Shown in pieces: positions 21,687 through 37,519 of a stretch of 64,000 nt of DNA. Position 1 is the stretch's first letter, and the number at the start of each line of letters is the position of its first letter. The notes under the pieces are model-generated. The model was not told where the DNA came from and searched no databases. It saw nothing but the letters and a program-made list of their open reading frames with translations. Source of the DNA: Massilia sp. METH4 (GTDB lineage: Bacteria > Pseudomonadota > Gammaproteobacteria > Burkholderiales > Burkholderiaceae_D); assembly GCF_037094685.1 (NCBI RefSeq), contig NZ_CP146614.1, positions 3,906,001 through 3,970,000 on the forward strand. Direction: 5' to 3'. The translations under genes were made by a program, and so were the position numbers.

Positions 21687-21797
21687 GGGCTCGTTGCCAA
21701 TGCCGAGCGCTCGCCGCAATTTGCCGACGATGGCATGAACAGCACGGAAGCGAGCGAGGAGCGGCAGGCCGTCGCGCATGCGCCGGCGGTGCGCTAG
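21687..21797 (+). pseudogene. Stranded 3' end related to the small gene at 31466-31711
   Basis: This intergenic stretch reads GLVANAERS, then after a few variable residues DDGMNSTEASEERQAVAH, then a stop. It closely matches the C-terminus of the small protein encoded at 31466-31711 (GLVATAERS, DDGMNATEASEERHAVAE). No start codon or upstream part of that gene is present, so it is a truncated copy. Its end overlaps the last bases of the aspS-like gene on the other strand. Confidence 0.62.
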
Positions 21798-27439: not shown

Positions 27440-28363
27440 ATGGCCCGACCACCTCTCGTCTTCAAGCGCAGCACGAACATGCTGCTCGACCACCTCGCCG
27501 CCCACGTGGCGATCGGTGACCCGCTGCCGACCGAGCAGCAGATGGCCGCCCTTGTCGAGGGCAGCCGCACGGCCGTGCGCAGCGTGCTGGCGCACCTGCA
27601 CGAGCAGGGCCTGATCGGCGACCTGAAGGAGCGCCGGCTGCTGCGCAAGCCGCGCCGCAAGGATTATTTCGATATCGCCGAATTGCAGCCGGGCTCGGAC
27701 CGCATCCGCGAAGTGCTGATGGAGCGCATCTACCAGCGCGACATGCCGCCCGGCGCCGAGTTCTCGGAGACGGAGCTGGCGCGCGCCTCGGGCACCGGCA
27801 CGATCAGCGTGCGCGAATTCCTGATCGAGTTCTCGCGCTCGGGCCTCATCGAAAAGAAACCGCGCGGCGGCTGGCGCCTGTGCGCCTTCGACCGCTCGTT
27901 CGCGATGGAGCTGGCGGACGTGCGGCAGATGTTCGAGTTCGCCGCCGTCGACCAGTTCGCGCAACTGCCGGCCGACGATCCGGCGTTCGAGAAGCTCGAT
28001 GAACTGATCGCGCGGCACGAGCAGCTCGGCTCCGTGATGCCGGCGCGGCACAAGGATTTCCCCGCGCTGGACCGCGACTTCCACACCTTCCTCATCGGCC
28101 TGCTGCACAACCGCTTCGCCAAGAGCCTCTACGACGTGGTGTCGCTGGTGTTCCACTACCACTACCAGTGGGACAAGGACGAAGAGCAGGCCCGCAACCA
28201 GTACGCGGTGCACGAACACCTGGATATCCTGCGGGCGCTGGCGCGGCGCGATTTCGCCGGCGCGCGCGAGGCGATGCGCATCCACCTGAATTCATCGCGC
28301 AGCACGCTGCTGCAAGGGATCCGCGCCCGGGAAGAAAAGGCGCAGGCCAAACACCAACGATAA
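27440..28363 (+). CDS. GntR/FadR-type regulator with two winged-helix domains and an FCD domain
   Basis: A 307-residue regulator. Residues about 10-68 form a first GntR-like winged helix (PLPTEQQMAALVEGSRTAVRSV, then GLIGDLKERRLLRKP). Residues about 82-150 form a second (IREVLMERIYQRDMPPGAEF, ETELARASGTG, GLIEKKPRGGWRL). A helical FCD ligand domain follows, with metal-type ligands in DFHTFL, FHYHYQWD and VHEHLDIL. One winged helix is the rule in this family, so the tandem is notable. It sits between the divergent GH28 operon and the alpha-galactosidase gene 30 bases downstream, so it probably controls this polysaccharide locus in response to a sugar acid. ATG 27440 is preferred; the upstream frame runs through the repeat cluster. 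Confidence 0.88.
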   Translation: MARPPLVFKRSTNMLLDHLAAHVAIGDPLPTEQQMAALVEGSRTAVRSVLAHLHEQGLIGDLKERRLLRKPRRKDYFDIAELQPGSDRIREVLMERIYQRDMPPGAEFSETELARASGTGTISVREFLIEFSRSGLIEKKPRGGWRLCAFDRSFAMELADVRQMFEFAAVDQFAQLPADDPAFEKLDELIARHEQLGSVMPARHKDFPALDRDFHTFLIGLLHNRFAKSLYDVVSLVFHYHYQWDKDEEQARNQYAVHEHLDILRALARRDFAGAREAMRIHLNSSRSTLLQGIRAREEKAQAKHQR

Positions 28364-28393
28364 CGACAGCAACGACAAGGAGACGAACCCGCA

Positions 28394-30655
28394 ATGAGCA
28401 ACATCGACCGCGACATCGACCGGCGGCGGCGCGCCGTGTGCATGCAACTCCTCGGCGGTCTCGCCGGCATCGCCCTCGGCGGCAGCGCCCGCGCCAGGCC
28501 CTCGGTGGACGAAGCGGCGAAAGTCTTCCGGCTCGATGGCGCCGGCGTCACGTACGCGTTCGGCGTCAACAAGGATGGCCAGTTGCAGTCGCTGTACTGG
28601 GGCAGCGCGCTGGCGCCGGAAGACCGCTTCCCGACCCCGGTGCCGGTATGGGAAAACTCGTCGAACGAAACATCCACCGTGGTCACGCCGCACGAATTCC
28701 CGGGCTTCGGCGGCGGGGTGACGATGGAGCCGTCGCTGAAGGTTACTTTCCCCGACGGCGTGCGGGATCTCGTGCTCAAGCACGTCGACCACCGCGTGGA
28801 GGGCGATCGTATCGTAATCCGCCTGAAGGACGTGAGCCGCGCCGTGCACGTCACGCTCACGTATGCGATGGATGCCGCGACGGGTATCCTCGCGCGCTCC
28901 GCGGTGGTGGAGAACCGCACCGGCAACTGGATACAGGTGGACCAGCTGGCGGCGGCGAGCCTGAACCTGCCGTACGGCGACGATTACCGGCTTTCCTACC
29001 TCACCGGGCGCTGGGCTGGCGAGTTCGCCCTGCAAACCCACGACATCGTGCCGGGCTCGATCGTGATTGAAAGCCGCAAGGGCGTTACATCGCACCAGGC
29101 CAATCCATGGATCGCGATCAGCCGCGGCAACACCGAGGAGGAATCCGGGCCAGTGTGGTTCGGCGCGCTGGGCTGGAGCGGCTCGTGGCGCATCCACGTG
29201 GACATGGAATCGCTCGGCAACATCCGCGCCACCGCCGGCTACAACCCGTTCGACTTCGCGTATCGCCTGAAACCCGGCGAAAGCCTGGCTTCACCCGTCT
29301 TCCATGCCGGCTATTCGGAGGAGGGCTTCGGCGGCGCCTCGCGCCTCTTCCACCGCTACCAGCGCGAGAAGATCCTGCCCGGCGCGCCGGCGCCGAAGGT
29401 GCGGCCGGTGCTGTACAACTCGTGGGAAGCCACGCTGTTCTCCGTGGACGAAGCGGGGCAGACGGCGCTGGCCGAAAAGGCGGCCAGCATCGGCGTGGAG
29501 CGCTTCGTGATGGACGACGGCTGGTTCGGTGCCCGCAACGACGACAAGGCCGGCCTGGGCGACTGGGTCGTCAACCGCAAGAAATTCCCGAACGGGCTGG
29601 CGCCGCTGATCAGGCGCGTGCGCGAGCTGGGCATGGAGTTCGGGCTGTGGGTGGAACCGGAGATGGTCAATCCCGACAGCGACCTGTATCGCGCCCACCC
29701 GGACTGGGTGATCCACTTCCAGGGCCGCCCCCGCAGCGAGGCACGCAACCAGCTCGTGCTGAACCTAGCGCGCAAGGACGTGTACGAGCACCTCCTGGCC
29801 ATGCTCGACCGCCTGCTCAAGGACCACGACATCGCCTTCCTGAAATGGGACCACAACCGCGCCTGGTCCGAGCCGGGCTGGCCGCAAGTGGCGCCGGCCG
29901 AGCAGCAGCGGCTGTACGTGGCGTACGTGCAGAACCTGTACAAGCTGCTGGCCGAGCTGCGCCGGCGCCACCCGAACGTGGAGATCGAATCCTGCGCCAG
30001 CGGCGGCGGGCGCGTGGACCTGGGCATCATGGCGCTGACCGACCAGGTGTGGACGTCCGATAACACCGACCCGCTGGACCGCCTGCTGATCCAGGACGGC
30101 TTCACGCGCGCCTATACGCCGCAAATCATGATGGCGTGGGTGACCGAGGCGCCGAACTTCGTGAACAAGCGCGTCACGTCGCTTGAATACCGCTTCCTGT
30201 CGGCGATGCAGGGCGGGCTCGGGATCGGCGCGAACCTGAACCATTGGAAGGAAGCCGACTTCGCGACGGCGAAACGGCTCGTGGCGGAATACAAGGCGAC
30301 CCGCAAGACCGTATTGCAGGGGAACCTGTACCGGCTCGTGTCGCCACAGCACCGCTCGGGCCGCTCGGCCACGCTGTCGGTGGCGCAGGACGGCAGCCAG
30401 GCGGTGCTCTTCGCCTTCCTGCATGCCAGCGGCATGCGCGACCCGTTGCCGCGCATCCAGCTGCGCGGGCTCGATCCGAAGCGCACGTATGCGCTGCGCG
30501 CCATCGCCGGCACGGCCGCGCCGCGCACGCCGCGGCAAGCCAGCGGCGCCTACTGGATGGGCCATGGCGTGCAGGTCGTGCTGGCGGGGGACTTCCAGGC
30601 GGCGGCGTTCGTGCTCGACGCGGCGGCTGGGCCAGCGCTGGCGATACCGGGCTGA
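28394..30655 (+). CDS. Alpha-galactosidase, glycoside hydrolase family 36, exported
   Basis: A 753-residue enzyme. The N-terminus has a Tat-like signal (RRRRAVCMQLLGGLAG, cleavage near ARA). A beta-sandwich domain precedes the catalytic barrel, which shows WVEPEMVNPDSDL, the nucleophile region FLKWDHNR and the acid/base region TSDNTDPLDR, all characteristic of GH36. A C-terminal beta domain ends the protein. It removes alpha-1,6-galactose from oligosaccharides such as raffinose or from galactomannan. It lies 30 bases after the GntR-type regulator, behind AAGGAGA, so the two are probably co-transcribed. About 170 bases of its 3' end are found again at 35151. Confidence 0.92.
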   Translation: MSNIDRDIDRRRRAVCMQLLGGLAGIALGGSARARPSVDEAAKVFRLDGAGVTYAFGVNKDGQLQSLYWGSALAPEDRFPTPVPVWENSSNETSTVVTPHEFPGFGGGVTMEPSLKVTFPDGVRDLVLKHVDHRVEGDRIVIRLKDVSRAVHVTLTYAMDAATGILARSAVVENRTGNWIQVDQLAAASLNLPYGDDYRLSYLTGRWAGEFALQTHDIVPGSIVIESRKGVTSHQANPWIAISRGNTEEESGPVWFGALGWSGSWRIHVDMESLGNIRATAGYNPFDFAYRLKPGESLASPVFHAGYSEEGFGGASRLFHRYQREKILPGAPAPKVRPVLYNSWEATLFSVDEAGQTALAEKAASIGVERFVMDDGWFGARNDDKAGLGDWVVNRKKFPNGLAPLIRRVRELGMEFGLWVEPEMVNPDSDLYRAHPDWVIHFQGRPRSEARNQLVLNLARKDVYEHLLAMLDRLLKDHDIAFLKWDHNRAWSEPGWPQVAPAEQQRLYVAYVQNLYKLLAELRRRHPNVEIESCASGGGRVDLGIMALTDQVWTSDNTDPLDRLLIQDGFTRAYTPQIMMAWVTEAPNFVNKRVTSLEYRFLSAMQGGLGIGANLNHWKEADFATAKRLVAEYKATRKTVLQGNLYRLVSPQHRSGRSATLSVAQDGSQAVLFAFLHASGMRDPLPRIQLRGLDPKRTYALRAIAGTAAPRTPRQASGAYWMGHGVQVVLAGDFQAAAFVLDAAAGPALAIPG

Positions 30656-30735
30656 CGTCGCCGCCTTGCTCGCGCTCTTGCGCATCCATGCCGAGCCGGT
30701 CTGCCACGCGCTGGCGCAGCGGTCCCCGCAGAGAG

Positions 30736-30927
30736 TCATTGCACGCTCGTTGGCGCGCGGAATTGTGCCCTGCGGGCGAACGCATCGTCTCCGAGGACCC
30801 TGTCGATCACGGCGCGGGACAAGCCCTCCTGGGTCAACAGTCGCTCGGCATGGCCGCTGGCGATGATGCACTTCAATATCACCGCCGCGTCGACGATTCC
30901 GGCGAGCGCAAAATTTCTTCGTCGCAT
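30736..30927 (-). CDS. Small protein with one VDAA-RVL helical module
   Basis: A 63-residue protein of unknown function. Residues 11-46 (IVDAAVILKC to IDRVLGD) match the module that occurs twice in the proteins encoded at 30987-31469 and 34048-34500: V-D-x-A, about 15 residues, A-x-x-x-L, a G, and a final R-V-L. A good ribosome site (GAGGTG) lies before ATG 30927. It follows the gene at 30987-31469 by 59 bases in the same direction and is probably the last gene of a three-gene operon. No signal peptide is convincing. Function is not predicted. Confidence 0.6.
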   Translation of the reverse strand: MRRRNFALAGIVDAAVILKCIIASGHAERLLTQEGLSRAVIDRVLGDDAFARRAQFRAPTSVQ

Positions 30928-30986
30928 CGACGTCACCTCGTTAGCGGGGCCGGGAAGCGCGTGCGGCGGGATCGGACGATACCCGG

Positions 30987-31469
30987 TCAGTACCAGCGGA
31001 TGGCCCGGCGGCGGTCGGGTTCCAGCATCACGCGCTGGATCGCCGACGCGGCAACGCCATACAGTTCGAGCAGCTCTTCCGCTTCCGGCCTGGCATCCTG
31101 CTTCGACAGCTCCACGGCGCGATCGACTACCTGGGCCGTGATCGTATCGCGGCGGCGGCGGTTTTCGCCGTGCCGCACGTCCAGCATCGTTTCGCATTCC
31201 GACTGCCAGTGGGTATGCTTTTGCTGCAGCGCTTCCCTCATGGCTTCTTCGTCACTCTGCCGCCGCGTCCCGTTGCAGGAGATGGCCCTGAGCGCGGTGG
31301 CTGGCGCGATGTCGCGCAGGCGTAAGTGGTACCACGCGTTCATGGGGCCCAGGACGACGTTGACGCGCAATGCCGCTTCGAATACGCGCGCCCGGGCCTG
31401 GTCGAGCCGCCTGTCCCTTGCCCCGTCAGCTTCCATGGCACTGGCACTGGCGCTGGCGTTGCCGGTCAT
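30987..31469 (-). CDS. Unknown small protein with two VDAA-RVL helical modules
   Basis: A 160-residue protein not recognised as a known family. Module one (about residues 28-62) reads VFEAALRVNVVLG, NAWYHLRLRDIAPATALRAI; module two (about 115-150) reads VVDRAVELSKQDARPEAEEL, LYGVAASAIQRVM, ending EPDRRR. The protein at 34048-34500 has the same layout and closely similar modules (NAWYHLRLRDIAPATA versus SAWQYLRARGIAHATA). The basic C-terminus and helical hairpin pattern could mean nucleic-acid or protein binding, which is speculation. It starts inside the stop of the preceding gene (ATGA), so the two are translationally coupled. Base composition and codon use look native. Confidence 0.72.
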   Translation of the reverse strand: MTGNASASASAMEADGARDRRLDQARARVFEAALRVNVVLGPMNAWYHLRLRDIAPATALRAISCNGTRRQSDEEAMREALQQKHTHWQSECETMLDVRHGENRRRRDTITAQVVDRAVELSKQDARPEAEELLELYGVAASAIQRVMLEPDRRRAIRWY

Positions 31470-31711
31470 CGCATTGCCTGGGCTTCCGCCACGGCGTGCC
31501 GCTCCTCGCTCGCTTCGGTGGCGTTCATGCCGTCGTCGACGAGCCCGGCCGAGCGTTCGGCCGTGGCGACCAGCCCCCGGATGCAGTCCAGGTCTTCCGT
31601 CTCCTCGGCGGGGGTTACGTCTTCCCCGTCGTCGGGATCGCCGGGCGCCGGCGGTGCCGGCGCTGCTGCGTGCGGTCGAGAGGGCGCCGCGTCGGGATGC
31701 ATCGTAGTCAT
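31466..31711 (-). CDS. Unknown small acidic protein, first gene of a small-protein operon
   Basis: An 81-residue protein of unknown function, with a proline/alanine-rich acidic N-terminal half and a C-terminal helix ending DDGMNATEASEERHAVAEA. ATG 31711 is preferred because GGAG lies 6 bases upstream; ATG 31723 would add four residues. Its stop overlaps the start of the next gene. A truncated copy of its C-terminus lies at 21687-21797, so it belongs to a multicopy family in this genome. No signal peptide or membrane segment is seen. Confidence 0.6.
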   Translation of the reverse strand: MTTMHPDAAPSRPHAAAPAPPAPGDPDDGEDVTPAEETEDLDCIRGLVATAERSAGLVDDGMNATEASEERHAVAEAQAMR

Positions 31712-31907
31712 CATGTTCTCCATCAACGATCCGACTGTAGGCCGATTGCGTCGATAGCGCCGGCAATCGGGCGTGCCGGGCACGATAGGAAAGGAACATT
31801 GGCAATCGCCGCGCAGCGCTCCTCGTGCGACGCGGCCATGCCGGCGGGCGTCGGCCGACGATACGTGGTATCGTTTGTGAAGGTGCTCCGCACCACTAAA
31901 AGGAAGA

Positions 31908-34001
31908 ATGATGAACATGCAGATACTCGTCGTCACTTCCGATTCGCGCGACATGGAATTGCTTGGGCCCCTCGCGCGGCAGTCTGCCGGGGGGGAAGCT
32001 CCCAGGCATGTGTTCTCCTTCAAGGTCGTGGACAGTATCGCCCAGGCGATGCGCACCTCGGCCAAGGCCGCCCCCGACCTGGTGCTGGTCAATCTCGACC
32101 GGCAGCTCCACGCCAGCGCACTGCATCCCCTCGACCAGCTGGCAGTCTTCTTTGGCAGTGTACCGGTGATCGTGCTGTGCGGCGAGGGGGGGACGCCGGC
32201 CGGCAGTACCCTGGCCGCCGGGCATGTCGTGCTGGACAAGGCGCCGCTGCCGCTGCTGGCCGAGATGTTCCGCTCCGTGGTGGCGGGTGCCCGCAAGCTG
32301 CACGCCAGCACCGTGGAAAGCGTGCAGCGCGCCGCGCTGCTCGAGGCGATAGCCGACGCGGTCATCAGCACCGACATCGGGGGCAATGTGCGCTACCTGA
32401 ATTCAGCCGCCATGTCACTTGCCCAGGTGAGCCCGGAAGAGGCAGTCGGCCAGCCGATCGCGCAGCTGATGGTGCTCCAGGATGCCGTTACGCTTACCCC
32501 GATCCCGCACCCGCTGCTGGAAACCTTGCGCACGGGCCGGGCGAAGCGGGTCTTGGCGGGATCGGTCCTGGTGCGTAAGGATGGGTCCGAGATCGTTATC
32601 GAGGATTCGACCGGCCTTATCGTGGATGCCGACGGGGCCATCGGCGGGGCGGTGATGGTTTTCCATGACATCACGGAAGCCCGCGAACTGCAGGCAAAGG
32701 TCGATTACCTGGCCTGGCATGATTACCTGACGGGCCTGCCCAATCGCTTCGCCGCCCAGCGGCACCTGAACCGCATCCTGCGCGAGGCTGCCACGCGCGG
32801 CCTGCCGCTGGCGGTCATGTATCTCGATCTCGACAGGTTCAAGTCCGTCAACGACACGCTCGGCCATGGTGCCGGCGACGCGCTGCTGGTATCCGTGGCG
32901 GCGCGCCTGCGCAGCTGCTTCCGCATGATCGATTTCGTCAGCCGGCAGGGCGGAGATGAGTTCATCGTGCTGATGGCGCCCGGCGCAAGCACTGCCGAGG
33001 CCGCCCGGGCGGCGGATCGCATCCTTGCCTCGGTCGCGCTGCCGCACGAACTGGAAGAGGGAGCGGCGCATGTCGGCTGCAGCATCGGCATCGCCATGTT
33101 CCCGGAGCACGGCACCAGTGGCGAAACGCTGCTGCGGCATGCCGACACCGCCCTGCACGGCACCAAGGCGGCGGGCCGCAACCATTACCGGTTCTTCGAG
33201 GCTGCCATGCTGAGCACGGCCGTACAGCGCCGCCAGCTCGAAGACGGCATGCGCCGGGCCCTCGCGGAAGGCGGATTCGAACTGCATTACCAGCCCAAGG
33301 TCCGTCTCAGCGATGGGGGGCTGTGCGGCTGCGAGGCGTTGTTGCGCTGGCATCACCCGGAATGGGGGTGGGTCGGCCCGGTGGAGTTCATCCGCTCCGC
33401 CGAGGAATCAGGCATGATCGTTCCGCTCGGCCGGTGGGTGCTCGGGGAAGCGCTCAGGCAGGCGCGGTCCTGGCACGCGGCGGGCTATGGCTTCGGCCCG
33501 ATCGCCGTCAACGTGTCGGCGCTGGAGCTGCGGCATGGGGGCTTCGTGGAACATGTCGAGGAAATGCTCGGCGCTTCGCCGCTGGCGCCAGGCAGCCTGC
33601 AGCTGGAGCTGACGGAATCGACCTTGATGCGCGACCTCGACCACTCGATCGGCGTCCTCCTGCGGTTGAAGGGCCTCGGCCTGTCGCTGGCGATAGACGA
33701 TTTCGGCACGGGCTACTCCAGCCTCGGGTATCTCGCCGAGTTGCCGGTCGATGTGCTCAAGCTGGATCGCAGCTTCGTCAGCGGCATCGACAGCGCGGCA
33801 CCGCGCCGGCAGGCATTGCTCCAGGCAGTGATCGTGCTGGCGCAGAGGCTTGCCTTGCCGACCGTGGCGGAGGGTATCGAAACCGGGATGGAAGCCGCCT
33901 TCCTGTCGCGGGCCGGCTGTTCGCACGGGCAGGGCTTCTATTACAGTCATGCGCTCGAGCCCGTTCGGTTCGCCCAGGCCTACCTGGGCGCGCAGGCATG
34001 A
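31908..34001 (+). CDS. Response-regulator-like PAS-GGDEF-EAL protein
   Basis: A 697-residue soluble c-di-GMP protein. The N-terminal 125 residues resemble a receiver domain (QILVVTSDSRD, DLVLVNLD, VPVIVLCGEG), but the usual phospho-acceptor context is altered. A PAS domain follows (about 140-255, ending MVFHDITEAREL), then a GGDEF domain with intact RQGGDEFIVL and an EAL domain with CEALLRWHHPEWGW, ELTEST and DDFGTGYSS. It can in principle make and break c-di-GMP. ATG 31911 is also possible and is better spaced from AAAAGGAAG. It stands between two leftward small-protein operons and is transcribed the other way. Confidence 0.9.
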   Translation: MMNMQILVVTSDSRDMELLGPLARQSAGGEAPRHVFSFKVVDSIAQAMRTSAKAAPDLVLVNLDRQLHASALHPLDQLAVFFGSVPVIVLCGEGGTPAGSTLAAGHVVLDKAPLPLLAEMFRSVVAGARKLHASTVESVQRAALLEAIADAVISTDIGGNVRYLNSAAMSLAQVSPEEAVGQPIAQLMVLQDAVTLTPIPHPLLETLRTGRAKRVLAGSVLVRKDGSEIVIEDSTGLIVDADGAIGGAVMVFHDITEARELQAKVDYLAWHDYLTGLPNRFAAQRHLNRILREAATRGLPLAVMYLDLDRFKSVNDTLGHGAGDALLVSVAARLRSCFRMIDFVSRQGGDEFIVLMAPGASTAEAARAADRILASVALPHELEEGAAHVGCSIGIAMFPEHGTSGETLLRHADTALHGTKAAGRNHYRFFEAAMLSTAVQRRQLEDGMRRALAEGGFELHYQPKVRLSDGGLCGCEALLRWHHPEWGWVGPVEFIRSAEESGMIVPLGRWVLGEALRQARSWHAAGYGFGPIAVNVSALELRHGGFVEHVEEMLGASPLAPGSLQLELTESTLMRDLDHSIGVLLRLKGLGLSLAIDDFGTGYSSLGYLAELPVDVLKLDRSFVSGIDSAAPRRQALLQAVIVLAQRLALPTVAEGIETGMEAAFLSRAGCSHGQGFYYSHALEPVRFAQAYLGAQA

Positions 34002-34047
34002 GAGGGCGCGCCGGCCAATGAGGGGCCGAGGCGACTGGACGTGCTCT

Positions 34048-34500
34048 CTACGGAGCCGCCTGGGGCCGCCGCCGCCTGCGGTGAGGCTCGAACAGCACGC
34101 GCATGACCGTCGCGGTATTCAGGCTGTACATGCGCAGCAGGCTTTCCGCGTAATGCCTCCCATGCGTGGCCGTGCGCCCGATGGCACGCTCGACGGCAAG
34201 TGCGGCCGCCACGTTCGTGCGCGGCACCTCCGCCCTGGCCGGCGCACCCTGCGGCATTGCCGAGCGTTGCGCGATGCCCGTCTCGGGCTGGCGCTCGAGC
34301 GCATCCCGGACGGCGGGATGCACGGCGTCCCCCGCGCGCCGCGCGCCGTGTTTTCCCAGCACGCGCGCGGCTGTCGCGTGGGCGATGCCGCGCGCGCGCA
34401 GGTATTGCCAGGCGCTGACGCAACCCCACTGCGCATCGATGCGGATGGCTGCGTCCACTACCCTTGCCTGCTGCCCGTCCGCCCTGCGGTCACCGTTCAT
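34048..34500 (-). CDS. Unknown small protein with two VDAA-RVL helical modules (paralogue of 30987-31469)
   Basis: A 150-residue protein of unknown function. Module one (about residues 14-50) reads VVDAAIRIDAQWG, SAWQYLRARGIAHATAARVL; module two (about 105-140) reads VERAIGRTATHGRHYAESLL, MYSLNTATVMRVL, then EPHRRRRRP. The paralogue at 30987-31469 has the same two modules, spacing and basic tail. It overlaps the upstream gene by 4 bases (ATGA). The region between modules is variable and alanine/arginine-rich. Clearly coding by composition, but no function can be assigned. Confidence 0.72.
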   Translation of the reverse strand: MNGDRRADGQQARVVDAAIRIDAQWGCVSAWQYLRARGIAHATAARVLGKHGARRAGDAVHPAVRDALERQPETGIAQRSAMPQGAPARAEVPRTNVAAALAVERAIGRTATHGRHYAESLLRMYSLNTATVMRVLFEPHRRRRRPQAAP

Positions 34501-34823
34501 GCCGATCTCCCGTGGCGCGCGTACGCCAAGGCATCTTCAAGCCTGTCGTAGCGATAGGGGCCGACGCTGAAGCGCCCGTGGTCGAACCCGATCGACAGCT
34601 CGCGCATCGCCGCTCTCTGCGCGGCATCCGGAGTCCACTCGGGCAGCCACTGCGGGACGAACGAAGCGTCGCGCTCGTACCCTGGCTTTGCGTGCTGCGA
34701 GCGCGCGTAACGCAGCGCGTCGTCCAGGTGCTCGTAGCGGTACTGGCGGAAGTGGTAGTGATGGCCGTCGAACGTGACCTCGAGCGCAAGGCCGGCTTCG
34801 GCGGAAGTGGACGGGTCGGTCAT
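34497..34823 (-). CDS. Unknown small protein with an internal duplication (YRYxxLxDALxYAR motif)
   Basis: A 108-residue protein of unknown function. Two halves repeat the pattern F-D, aromatic strand, Y-R-Y, L-(D/E)-D-A-L, Y-A-R: VTFDGHHYHFRQYRYEHLDD at about 16-35 and IGFDHGRFSVGPYRYDRLED at about 78-97. This suggests a beta-strand-plus-helix unit duplicated in tandem, separated by a WLPEWTPDAAQR linker. It is translationally coupled (ATGA) to the two-module helical protein downstream. The ribosome site (GGAAAC) is weak. The four residues YRYE/YRYD and DAL are the best search seeds. Confidence 0.7.
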   Translation of the reverse strand: MTDPSTSAEAGLALEVTFDGHHYHFRQYRYEHLDDALRYARSQHAKPGYERDASFVPQWLPEWTPDAAQRAAMRELSIGFDHGRFSVGPYRYDRLEDALAYARHGRSA

Positions 34824-34957
34824 GATGTTTCCATTGCCGCGGGCGGCGTGATGTTGTGGGAGGCGCTGGCGGCCGGGGCCGGTCCGCGTCATCCTGGCGC
34901 GAGGTGCCGCCAATATGTTGAAGTCTACGCCCTTTGCCGAATGCGCGGACTTCGATT

Positions 34958-35107
34958 GGCGATGGCGCGCCGGAGGCGCAGCCTGGCTCGGTCGATGCGG
35001 CGCCCGCATGGCTGAGGCAAGCCAGGGCGGCGGCCAGGAGCTGCCCCCCGGATCGGAGCGCGCCGATCCGCCGCGCACCGGCCCGGGCCGTCGACATCGA
35101 CCCGTGA
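34958..35107 (+). pseudogene. Stranded 3' end related to the gene at 39481-39948
   Basis: Read in frame, this stretch gives EAQPGSVDAAPAWLRQARAA, then SAPIRR and a stop at 35107. The gene at 39481-39948 ends EGQLASIDEAFAWLRQARAT, SAPIRR, stop. The match continues past both stop codons for about 40 bases (GGCACCGATGGG, CGTGATCCG), so a gene end plus its flank was copied. There is no start codon or 5' part. It sits in a 595-base gap (34824-35418) that holds no intact gene. Confidence 0.7.
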
Positions 35108-35150
35108 CAACGAGCCGGTGGCACCGATGGGCCGCGTGATCCGGGGCCGG

Positions 35151-35333
35151 CCCGCTGCCGCGCATCCAGCTGCGCGGGCTCGATCCGAAGCGCACCTATG
35201 CGCTGCGCGCCACCGCCGGCACGGCCGCGCCGCGCACGCCGCGGCAAGCCAGCGGCGCCTGCTGGATGGGCCATGGCGTGCAGGTCGTGCTGGCGGGGAC
35301 TTCCAGGCGGCGTTCGTGCCGGAGGCGGCGGGC
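35151..35333 (+). pseudogene. Stranded copy of the alpha-galactosidase 3' end
   Basis: About 170 bases match 30442-30615 in the GH36 gene with four substitutions and two small deletions (1 and 3 bases). In one frame it reads RIQLRGLDPKRTYALRA, then QASGACWMGHGVQVVLAG before the 1-base deletion shifts the frame. Homology begins exactly where the flank of the previous gene-tail fragment ends (about 35150), so the two tails are joined at a chimeric junction. It is non-functional by itself. Confidence 0.9.
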
Positions 35334-35418
35334 GGATAGCCGTTTTGCGCAGGGTGGCGGTACAATCCTCGCAAGAAAAGTGCCGATTCGCCGGCACCGG
35401 GAAGGAGAAAGGCCGGCC

Positions 35419-36222
35419 ATGTCCGTCGACTCCCAATTCGCGGGCCAGCTCCCGCACTGCTACGAGCGTTACCTCGTGCCGCTGCTGTTCGGGCCCTATG
35501 CGCAAGACCTCGCCGCGCGTTGCGCGGGCCTCTCGCCGCGGCAGTTGCTGGAAATCGCGGCGGGTACCGGTGTCGTGACCCGGCAGCTCGCCGCCGGGCT
35601 GCCTTCTGCGCGCATCGTTGCGACGGACTTGAATCGGGACATGCTCGCCGTCGGCCTGCGCGCGGTTCACACGCCACAGGTTTCATGGCAAGTCGCCGAT
35701 GCGATGCAGCTGCCCTTCGGCGACGCCGGCTTCGACCTCGTCGTGTGCCAGTTCGGCGTGATGTTCTTTCCCGACAAGCGACAAGCGTTCGCCGAGGCGC
35801 GGCGGGTGCTTATGCCGGGCGGCCGGTTCCTCTTCAACGTGTGGGATACGCTCGAGGCCAACGAATTCGCCGCCGAGGTGCAGGCCGCCGTGGCGGAGCT
35901 GCACCCGGCCGACCCGCCAGGTTTCTTTGGCCGCACGCCGCACGGCTACCACGACCTCGATGCGATTGCGCGGGACCTCGCGGCGGCAGGGTTTGCGTCG
36001 CCGCCGCACATCGAGAGTGTAGCCCTGCGCAGCCAGGCCGCGAACGCGCTCGACGTGGCTGCGGGATTTTGCCTCGGCACGCCACTGCGCCTGGAAATCG
36101 GCGCGCGCGGCGGTGATCCGGCGACCGCTGCCGCCTTTGTGGCTTCGCGCCTGGAGCAGCGCTTCGGCAAGGGGCCGATCGGCGGCGCCATGCGCGCTCA
36201 CGTTATTTCGGTAGTGGCATGA
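35419..36222 (+). CDS. SAM-dependent class I methyltransferase
   Basis: A 267-residue cytoplasmic methyltransferase. Motif I is LLEIAAGTGVVTRQL (about 45-59), the acidic residue binding the SAM ribose is in VATDLN (about 70), and DAMQLPFGDAGFDLVVCQFG gives motifs II-III, as in UbiE-like enzymes. The acceptor substrate is unknown. GAAGGAG precedes ATG 35419. An upstream in-frame ATG lies in the alpha-galactosidase fragment and is not credible. Its end overlaps the convergent haloperoxidase-like gene by 20 bases. Confidence 0.88.
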   Translation: MSVDSQFAGQLPHCYERYLVPLLFGPYAQDLAARCAGLSPRQLLEIAAGTGVVTRQLAAGLPSARIVATDLNRDMLAVGLRAVHTPQVSWQVADAMQLPFGDAGFDLVVCQFGVMFFPDKRQAFAEARRVLMPGGRFLFNVWDTLEANEFAAEVQAAVAELHPADPPGFFGRTPHGYHDLDAIARDLAAAGFASPPHIESVALRSQAANALDVAAGFCLGTPLRLEIGARGGDPATAAAFVASRLEQRFGKGPIGGAMRAHVISVVA

Positions 36223-37519
36223 AGGCGTGCCCCATCGTCCAGCCGGCGACCCTCCTGCCGAGCTCGGCCCCCGCAGCCGTCGAATAACGGAAGTGCATGC
36301 CGCCATAGATGCGCGCCATCCTGCTTTCATCGGCCAGCGCGTCGGTGTCGGTGTAGGTGCGCGTCGTGTTGGTGACCTTGCTGTCCCAGGTGAAGGTGAC
36401 CTGGTCGGTGCCGTAGTACTGGCGCAGCAGCTCGCCGAGCGTGGCGGCCGAACAGGAATGCGCCGCCGGATACTCGGGATGATTCGGCGTGGCCAGCACG
36501 GGTTTCCATGCCGGATCGGCCTGCGTAGCCGGGTTGCCGTCCGTCTCGGCCAATGGGATGGCGCTTTGCGGGCGCCAGGTGTCGTAGTGATACTTCGCTT
36601 CGAGACACGCGCCGATAGCATCGGCATAGTTGGCGTAGATCGCCCCCATCAGGCGGGCGGCATCGGCGGTATCGGCGGTCGTTCGGGCGAAGCGGCCGAA
36701 GTTGCGGGTGAAATAGGTGGCTGGCGGCTCGGAGTGGAAGCGCGCCAGCTCCAGTTGCTCCGCCGTGCGGCGTGTACTGTTCATGCCGCCCAGCATTTTC
36801 ACCTCGTTGAAGTCCGCCGCGTATTCGGCGCTCTCGAGTGCCGGCGGGGGCGGTGGGCGAAACTGGGCGATGGCATTGACCGTGAAGGGACGCATCAGCG
36901 GCCAGTAGCGGTTGATCGGGTCCTTGCCCCGGAACCGGCCCGGCGCTTCCTGCGCCTCGTAGCCGGGCAGTACGTTCGCCCGGCCGTCGGCGGCGCGGCG
37001 CTCCAGGTGCGCCGCGGCCGCGGCCTTGCCAACGGCGATGCCGCGTGCCTTGCCCGGGTTGTCGGGAATCGCCGCCATGAAGCGTTCATGGGCTTGCCGG
37101 TATTGTTCGGAGCGGCTGGGGAAGAGTGCGCTGAGCACCTCGTACGCGGCGCTGCCCGTGGCGGCGTCGAGCGAGGCACCGGCATCGGACCGTTCCGGGG
37201 CGAACAGGAACGGGCGATAGCGCCGGTCGATCGCCATGGCTGCGTCGTACATGGCCAGGTGCAGCGTCGCCATGTCGGCCGGGAATGCGGCATATTTTTC
37301 CGCCTCGGTTGCCGTGGCCTGGGCCTTCGCAGTGACGGTGGCTGCCCCGATATCGTGCCAGTAGACGATGGCGTTGGTCTTGTCGGCCACGAGGATCACG
37401 CGCCGGCCCTGGGCTGGCTCGGCGCCACTGCAGACCGAGGTGGTGCCGACGGCCGTGCAAAGGCAGAGCAGGGACAGGGCGGCTGTCCGCCGGCTCGACG
37501 TTGAATGGATGGCGCTCAT
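36203..37519 (-). CDS. Vanadium-dependent haloperoxidase / PAP2-like family protein, exported
   Basis: A 438-residue protein with an N-terminal signal peptide (SRRTAALSLLCLCTAVGTTSV, cleavage near residue 33). The C-terminal half has the vanadate/phosphate-site pattern of the PAP2-haloperoxidase superfamily: KYHYDTWRPQSAI (K and R), HPEYPAAHSCSAAT (S and H) and RIYGGMHFRYS (R and final H). Family members oxidise halides with peroxide or act as acid phosphatases. ATG 37519 follows AGGAGG. The gene stands alone, and its 3' end overlaps the convergent methyltransferase gene by 20 bases. Halide or phosphatase activity cannot be separated from sequence. Confidence 0.86.
   Translation of the reverse strand: MSAIHSTSSRRTAALSLLCLCTAVGTTSVCSGAEPAQGRRVILVADKTNAIVYWHDIGAATVTAKAQATATEAEKYAAFPADMATLHLAMYDAAMAIDRRYRPFLFAPERSDAGASLDAATGSAAYEVLSALFPSRSEQYRQAHERFMAAIPDNPGKARGIAVGKAAAAAHLERRAADGRANVLPGYEAQEAPGRFRGKDPINRYWPLMRPFTVNAIAQFRPPPPPALESAEYAADFNEVKMLGGMNSTRRTAEQLELARFHSEPPATYFTRNFGRFARTTADTADAARLMGAIYANYADAIGACLEAKYHYDTWRPQSAIPLAETDGNPATQADPAWKPVLATPNHPEYPAAHSCSAATLGELLRQYYGTDQVTFTWDSKVTNTTRTYTDTDALADESRMARIYGGMHFRYSTAAGAELGRRVAGWTMGHAFMPLPK

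What the first reader, a model, noticed from the sequence alone, without database searches (positions are those of the whole stretch)
30736..34823. Two operons of unknown small proteins sharing a repeated helical VDAA-RVL module
The proteins at 30987-31469 and 34048-34500 are paralogues, each with two copies of a module of about 35 residues (V-D-x-A-(I/V/L), a G or polar turn, A-x-x-(L)L, (G/S)-(I/V/L), then R-V-(L/M)). A third gene (30736-30927) carries one copy. Each two-module gene is coupled by an ATGA overlap to a different small partner upstream. The two operons flank a GGDEF-EAL gene. I recognise no named family, so this may be an undescribed, expanding small-protein system; any function is inference.
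Basis: partly seen in the sequence, partly recalled or inferred. Interest (0 to 1): 0.72.

Follow-up and report, generated by a model that had tools for sequence, protein, structure and literature searches.

The report
New helical proteins beside c-di-GMP enzyme
This bacterium carries a large, so far unclassified family of tiny, probably helical proteins; the doubled version found here is often found beside genes for a bacterial signalling molecule (cyclic di-GMP), so it may be an unrecognised helper of that signalling system.

Summary
Five copies of one module lie in 30736-31469 and 34048-34500; a profile built without them finds exactly these five in the window (E 7e-15 to 4e-7; next best 0.26). 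The module is about 53 residues, not 35, probably three helices. Pfam, NCBIfam, PHROGs, PADLOC and PDB sequences give no significant match.

This genome has 25 copies at about 20 loci; all 37 searched genomes of its genus have 2-32; of 369 genomes sampled from the class only this one matched. Orthologues are under purifying selection.

The GGDEF-EAL gene between the operons belongs to the finding: of 15 clusters with a full-length 34048-type gene, 10 have a GGDEF domain within 2.5 kb, in three arrangements. Partner 34497 occurs in 11 of 12 such genomes, adjacent in six. Against a family-wide role, 60 other module loci show no GGDEF enrichment (3 of 60).

Best explanation: a tandem three-helix adaptor (34048/30987), with a repeat partner (34497), regulates the linked c-di-GMP enzyme. 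Family, selection and linkage are shown; fold and mechanism are inferred.

The parts
30736..30927 (-). single-module protein, 63 aa (module 30778-30924)
   Evidence: ORF; profile hit E 2.2e-8; homologue P0041, 57% over a 56-residue row; weak codon score 8.1
30987..31469 (-). two-module protein, 160 aa (C-module 31002-31157, N-module 31257-31412)
   Evidence: E 6.7e-15 and 4.4e-7; 4 homologues at 73-76%
31466..31714 (-). acidic small partner, 82 aa (net -13), overlapping 30987 by ATGA; divergent from the GGDEF-EAL gene
   Evidence: matches in 6 of 60 genus genomes counting own; no Pfam family above cut-off
31908..34001 (+). PAS-GGDEF-EAL protein, 697 aa, GGDEF and EAL motifs intact; part of the conserved neighbourhood
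   Evidence: PAS, GGDEF 1.8e-44, EAL 5.1e-65; motifs; homologues at 51-59% beside the two-module gene in G032, G356 and G001, and split over two frames in G028
34048..34500 (-). two-module protein, 150 aa, strongly basic (net +13, pI 11.6); C-module 34069-34221, N-module 34333-34488; tail-to-tail with the GGDEF-EAL gene
34497..34823 (-). small partner, 108 aa, two tandem copies of a unit with Y-R-Y-[ED]-x-L-x-D-A-L-x-Y-A-R; overlaps 34048 by ATGA
   Evidence: matches in 18 of 60 genus genomes counting own

Best explanation
The two operons encode accessory regulators of the c-di-GMP enzyme that lies between them. The two-module proteins (30987, 34048) are tandem three-helix adaptors built from a new, mainly Oxalobacteraceae domain; 34497 is their frequent repeat-built partner. 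Most likely the adaptor and its partner bind the GGDEF(-EAL) protein, or its product's target, and set its output. Shown: the domain family, purifying selection, the recurrent adjacency and the co-occurrence. Inferred: the three-helix fold (proline, glycine and hydrophobic pattern only), physical interaction, the direction of the effect. For the family at large, single-module proteins look like small regulatory adaptors plugged into different circuits; that wider part is a weaker inference.
For: 10 of 15 clusters that hold a full-length 34048-type gene have a GGDEF domain within 2.5 kb, against about 5% of loci by chance (1.07 of 20 by circular shifts in own genome; 3 of 60 other module loci). 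There are three arrangements: tail-to-tail with a homologous PAS-GGDEF-EAL gene (own, G032, G356, G028, G001); on the same strand just upstream of a ~360-aa protein with an intact GGDEF motif (G016, G022, G346, G349); and next to a partial GGDEF stretch in G347. 34048 and 34497 co-occur in 11 of the 12 genomes with full-length 34048 (18 of 60 have 34497; hypergeometric P 1e-6, relatedness not corrected). In G016 and G349 two-module gene, GGDEF gene and 34497-type gene form one run. dN/dS of 34048 and 34497 (0.15-0.48) is similar to that of the GGDEF-EAL gene (0.39-0.54). Other subfamilies repeat the theme: own 4018161 lies 36 nt after a CHASE-GGDEF-EAL gene, own 5595471 lies between two GGDEF genes, own 4981638 (an open frame not picked by the caller) is tail-to-tail with a GGDEF-EAL gene, and G003 has a two-module gene tail-to-tail with a GGDEF gene. 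Two large single-module groups sit beside a Crp-like regulator or a lone receiver protein.
Against: Five of the 15 clusters have no GGDEF domain near. The genomes are related, so the 10 are at most about three independent events. 34497 is adjacent to the two-module gene (or one gene apart) in only 6 of the 11 genomes that hold both (own, G032, G356, G028, G016, G349); in G022, G345, G346, G347 and G009 it lies elsewhere. Across 60 other module loci GGDEF density near the module is not raised (3 of 60; near/far ratio 0.70), and G020 shows no enrichment (1 of 16 listed, 0.8 expected). In G028 the GGDEF-EAL gene is split over two frames although the small genes persist. In G003 a 34497-type gene stands without GGDEF or module within the 19 kb fetched (L157). 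None of the three longer c-di-GMP-binding motifs tried is present. No structure could be predicted.
Confidence: 0.45

Rival explanations
1. The module is a small DNA-binding three-helix (helix-turn-helix-like) domain; two-module proteins are transcription factors that control their own operon and the GGDEF-EAL gene, with 34497/31466 as co-factors.
For: 34048 is very basic (net +13, family mean +10); helix 2 - G-[VIL] - helix 3 spacing recalls a helix-turn-helix (recalled, no call); arginines flank the module; neighbours of two single-module groups are regulators.
Against: The 30987 family is only +2 and single-module homologues run from -4 to +8; no HTH family is shared by the 57 single-module homologues with the limit at E 10 (RecX_HTH1 in 2, best E 0.086); the best PDB sequence matches are not significant.
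Confidence: 0.25
2. Hitchhiking: the modules do something unrelated (for example a stress or housekeeping role), and their place beside GGDEF genes is inherited within one lineage.
For: No family-wide GGDEF enrichment (3 of 60, ratio 0.70); 79 GGDEF matches in this genome, so chance neighbours are common; in G356 and G028 a second 34048-type gene sits near a YigZ-like gene (named by eye) without a GGDEF gene near.
Against: Three different arrangements with different GGDEF proteins; co-occurrence with 34497.
Confidence: 0.2
3. Two toxin-antitoxin-like or other selfish gene pairs (ATGA-coupled small genes, one acidic, one basic).
For: ATGA coupling; acidic 31466 (-13) with 30987; copy number varies widely.
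Against: No match to 34048 or a single-module homologue in plasmids, to a single-module relative in phages or to the two-module alignment in viral contigs, and none significant in PADLOC; partners are not fixed (31466-like without 30987 in G032); purifying selection.
Confidence: 0.05

Closest known systems
YcgZ-YmgA-YmgB-YmgC small proteins beside BluF (EAL) of E. coli
   Same: An operon of four small proteins lies next to an EAL-protein gene across a divergent control region and feeds into biofilm control (PMC3509220, passages seen).
   Different: No sequence relation found (no YmgB-family match among the Pfam families listed for 57 homologues); here GGDEF and EAL motifs are intact, no BLUF domain is among the Pfam matches, and the domain has spread to 25 copies. 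A BluR-like repressor was not looked for.
MshEN (GSPII) c-di-GMP receptor domain
   Same: Small helical domain working as tandem motifs, linked to c-di-GMP (PMC5013675, passages seen).
   Different: The 24-residue RLGxx... motif is in 0 of 86 proteins; no Pfam match.
DnaG primase N-terminal stretch / RecX three-helix domain
   Same: A short stretch SARQYLEKRGLSHEVIAR resembles module helices 2-3 (E 0.084; RecX_HTH1 best E 0.086 in 2 of 57).
   Different: Not significant; 18 residues only; no other shared feature seen.

Membership tests
MshEN / T2SSE_N c-di-GMP receptor | RLGxx[LVI][LVI]xxG[LVI][LVI]xxxxLxxxLxxQ motif | tested here: not met
   0 of 24, 0 of 5 and 0 of 57 proteins, strict or loosened; not among Pfam hits
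PilZ c-di-GMP receptor | RxxxR followed at 15-40 residues by [DN]x[SA]xxG | tested here: not met
   0 of 86
BldD-like c-di-GMP binding | RxD-x8-RxxD (spacing 6-10 allowed) | tested here: not met
   0 of 86
YmgB/AriR biofilm protein family | match to its Pfam profile | tested here: not met
   not among the families listed for 57 homologues at E up to 10 or for the window proteins at E up to 1
Helix-turn-helix DNA-binding proteins | profile match to an HTH family | tested here: not met
   no significant match; RecX_HTH1 and Tn916-Xis only at E 0.09-0.2 in 2 and 1 of 57
Helix-turn-helix DNA-binding proteins | tri-helical fold with recognition helix; DNA binding | not testable with these tools
   structure prediction switched off
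Known anti-phage defence proteins | match in PADLOC-DB | tested here: not met
   only a Cas6 match to 30987 at E 0.015 over residues 50-115, taken as chance
GGDEF-EAL enzymes (31908-34001) | GGDEF and EAL domains with catalytic motifs | tested here: met
   domains; QGGDEF, CEALLRW, DDFGTGYSSL; activity not testable

The most novel reading that the evidence does not exclude
The 53-residue module is a new class of c-di-GMP-responsive domain: tandem copies, with the tail R-V-[LM]...P-x-x-R-R-x-x-D, bind c-di-GMP or the inhibitory site of GGDEF proteins, and the family's radiation to 25-32 copies in some species is a lineage-specific set of second-messenger adaptors. RR-x-x-D is present in 23 of 24 34048-type, 5 of 5 30987-type and 35 of 57 single-module proteins, against 3.6, 1.1 and 4.8 in shuffled sequences; RxxD is the inhibitory motif of GGDEF domains (PMC5013675, passage). 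Against it: the motif is short, only 6 of the 25 trimmed module rows of this genome contain RR-x-x-D, and most single-module loci have no GGDEF gene near.
Probability: 0.12. Interest if true: 0.85.

Novelty: new variant of a known kind. Interest (0 to 1): 0.5.

Why it matters
This genome and two relatives have 77-81 GGDEF matches each, and how each such protein is kept specific is an open question in c-di-GMP biology (recalled). A small domain family with no entry in the libraries searched, whose tandem form stays next to one GGDEF-EAL lineage and in other species next to a different GGDEF protein, is a testable candidate for such a specificity factor. Independently, a domain without a Pfam entry that has 2-32 copies in each of 37 examined genomes of one genus deserves a family entry.

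Tried and rejected
Known-family assignment: Pfam, NCBIfam, PHROGs, PADLOC, PDB by sequence (26, 61, 74). Weak matches dropped as chance: DUF4258 (9 of 57, best E 0.007), DUF6866_C (E 0.016), an HNH-endonuclease PHROG on the L004 protein (E 0.0029), DnaG (E 0.084), Cas6 (E 0.015), a designed repeat protein (E 0.0012 for the whole sequence, no single stretch significant), and a PyrB-like frame in the own genome (E 1.2, L020, recognised by eye).

Mobile element: plasmids, phages, viral contigs (40) gave nothing; these tried 34048, two single-module proteins and the two-module alignment, not every window protein. The scan of genome contigs (39) used one peptide pattern and gave 2 loci (L070, L071); L070 is the same organism as G001, L071 is in no count. 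RNA element: no Rfam match at 28000-37000 (89). Promoter scan: no sigma-70-type site and six terminator-like sites (2.2 expected) that settle no operon border (88).

Family-wide c-di-GMP role: suggested by own genome (4 of 20 loci near GGDEF, 1.07 expected, P 0.02) and G032 (3 of 12 listed, 0.57 expected, P 0.018), not by G020 (1 of 16 listed, P 0.56), and rejected by 60 further loci (3 of 60). For G020 and G032 I used only modules listed (16 and 12 merged loci; those genomes have 31 and 21 matches) and the GGDEF hits listed before the list was cut. The 60 loci come from 24 genomes and from the 150 or so rows listed; I left out own, G020, G032, loci already fetched, and about fifteen listed loci, among them all of G005, G013, G019, G033, G034 and G035.

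DNA binding as a family trait: not supported by charge (77). Papers: searches looked for this family and showed nothing on it in the rows listed (8 of 14; none held the terms for 69 and 92); some looked for analogues. Listings only, except passages of PMC3509220 and PMC5013675.

Rows dropped before the 10-of-15 count: eight partial matches (51-84 query residues), from G019 (2), G346, G022, G349, G016 and G357 (2). The own pair 34048/30987 counts as one cluster. In one search, 14 of 60 loci had no called gene at the module and are not in the orthologue groups, and rows were printed for 9 of the 11 loci of the largest group. In one search the G028 two-module sequence carried about 55 extra residues before its start; one search repeats the four G028 pairs with the right start, and its ratios replace those.

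Full report
What is in the sequence. On the minus strand lie 30736-30927 (63 aa), 30987-31469 (160 aa), 31466-31714 (82 aa), 34048-34500 (150 aa) and 34497-34823 (108 aa); on the plus strand between the groups lies 31908-34001, a PAS-GGDEF-EAL protein. All six are picked by a codon-usage gene caller trained on long window genes, among them the GGDEF-EAL gene itself, with other starts for 31466, 34497 and the GGDEF-EAL gene. The stop codon of 31466 overlaps the start of 30987, and that of 34497 the start of 34048, in ATGA.

The module is real. The two-module proteins are paralogues over most of their length (36%, E 7e-17). A profile of 24 modules from elsewhere finds the five window copies and nothing else of note. 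From the alignment the module has about 53 positions. R3 is invariant in the 28 rows that reach it and R43 in all 29; A27, [VI]12, [AG]15, G23, L/M31, V44, L45, P52 and R55-R56 are frequent. Proline is absent from columns 8-19, 27-36 and 40-50, which together with the hydrophobic spacing suggests three helices.

The family. A first profile (17 modules) found 24 modules in this genome at E below 1e-6, 17 of them its own rows, plus one at 0.004; with the 25-row profile all 25 match. They lie at 20 places more than 4 kb apart. All 37 genomes of the same GTDB genus (own counted) have 2-32 matches; 1 of the 24 genomes of other families in that call has one. In 300 genomes of the order 13 match, own counted (at most 22 candidates per genome scored): five more of the same family (1-7 copies; four others of the family have none) and seven of other families, of which two, at E 7e-4 and 9e-4, are probably chance. 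In 369 genomes of the class only the own genome matches at E 1e-4 (up to 18 candidates per genome scored). Where a homologue bears a name it is Pseudoduganella, Duganella or Massilia. No protein-family library or PDB entry matches significantly.

Selection. Pairwise dN/dS of 34048 orthologues from own, G356, G032, G001 and G028 lies between 0.15 and 0.45 (G028 pairs), of 34497 between 0.25 and 0.48, of 31466 0.36 (one pair), and of the GGDEF-EAL gene 0.39-0.54. dS is near saturation in many of these pairs, but third codon positions differ most in every pair. In a closer set (G349, G022, G346) two-module dN/dS is 0.28-0.39 and the adjacent GGDEF gene 0.15-0.22.

The neighbourhood. In G016, G349, G022 and G346 the two-module gene is followed on the same strand by a ~360-aa protein with an intact GGDEF motif (one scanned: GGDEF E 4e-27); in G016 and G349 a 34497-type gene follows. 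In G032, G028 and G003 a further small gene (YRGHVID type; two scanned, no Pfam match) lies upstream of the 34497-type gene. Counting 15 clusters with a full-length 34048-type gene, 10 have a GGDEF domain within 2.5 kb, one of them (G347) only a partial stretch. Those without are the second loci of G356 and G028, G345, one of two in G347, and G009.

Co-occurrence. Of 60 genus genomes (own counted), 12 have a full-length 34048-type gene, 18 a 34497 homologue, 11 both; hypergeometric P 1e-6 without correction for relatedness. The two are adjacent, or one gene apart, in 6 of those 11. A 31466 homologue is in 6 of 60. In G032 it stands divergent from GGDEF-EAL with no 30987 beside it. The 30987 homologues P0026 and P0027 share longest-contig lengths (4819 and 2634) with 34048 homologues P0007 and P0002, which suggests, but does not show, that they lie together there.

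What speaks against a family-wide c-di-GMP role. Placed by circular shifts, module loci are near GGDEF genes more often than expected in own genome (4 of 20, 1.07 expected, P 0.02) and G032 (3 of 12 listed, 0.57, P 0.018) but not G020 (1 of 16 listed, 0.8). Among 60 further listed loci from 24 genomes only 3 are within 2.5 kb, and GGDEF density there is 0.70 times that farther out. Instead, two large single-module groups keep other company: in 8 of the 9 rows shown (group of 11) a protein that by its start looks Crp-like follows (one scanned: HTH_Crp_2), and in 8 of 9 of another group a receiver-like protein precedes by 40-76 nt (one scanned: Response_reg). I did not test these against a background.

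Reading. The evidence supports a new, lineage-restricted small domain, of which the tandem form at this locus is probably an accessory of c-di-GMP enzymes. Whether it acts on the enzyme, on its output or on transcription is open. The closest working analogue is the E. coli YcgZ-YmgABC set beside BluF (passages of PMC3509220); it is not a member of that family by the tests made. The boldest reading, c-di-GMP binding through the RR-x-x-D tail, is not excluded and is cheap to test.

Noticed in passing
window 30439-30589 and 35148-35298: A 151-nt direct repeat at 97%: the 3' end of the GH36 alpha-galactosidase gene (28394-30655) is duplicated on the far side of the finding, bracketing it. It suggests that the cluster was inserted or rearranged there; not tested in relatives.
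   Followed up: partly
window 21687-21794 (+): A stretch 72% identical (36 aa) to the C-terminal end of 31466, without an evident start codon of its own: probably a remnant of a second copy.
   Followed up: partly
G000:C1:4981638-4981778 (L125) and L154 9955-10368: Module next to a GGDEF-EAL gene and near YsnF-like and general-stress-like genes (named by eye); in G003 the gene has two modules, in this genome only one is seen, so it may be decaying.
   Followed up: partly
L189 8496-9171 and orthologues: A receiver-only protein is followed after 40-76 nt by a single-module gene in 8 of 9 loci of one orthologue group (one of the eight scanned by Pfam): a possible two-gene signalling unit.
   Followed up: no
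L138 10592-10834, L140 11643-11897, L157 9305-9553: A small 'YRGHVID' protein lies upstream of 34497-type genes in G032, G028 and G003 but is not found in the window by tblastn.
   Followed up: partly
L067 and L068 (another family of the order): Near-identical single-module proteins ending in PQQRR-x-TDWKH in two genomes of one other genus: possibly the older form of the domain.
   Followed up: no
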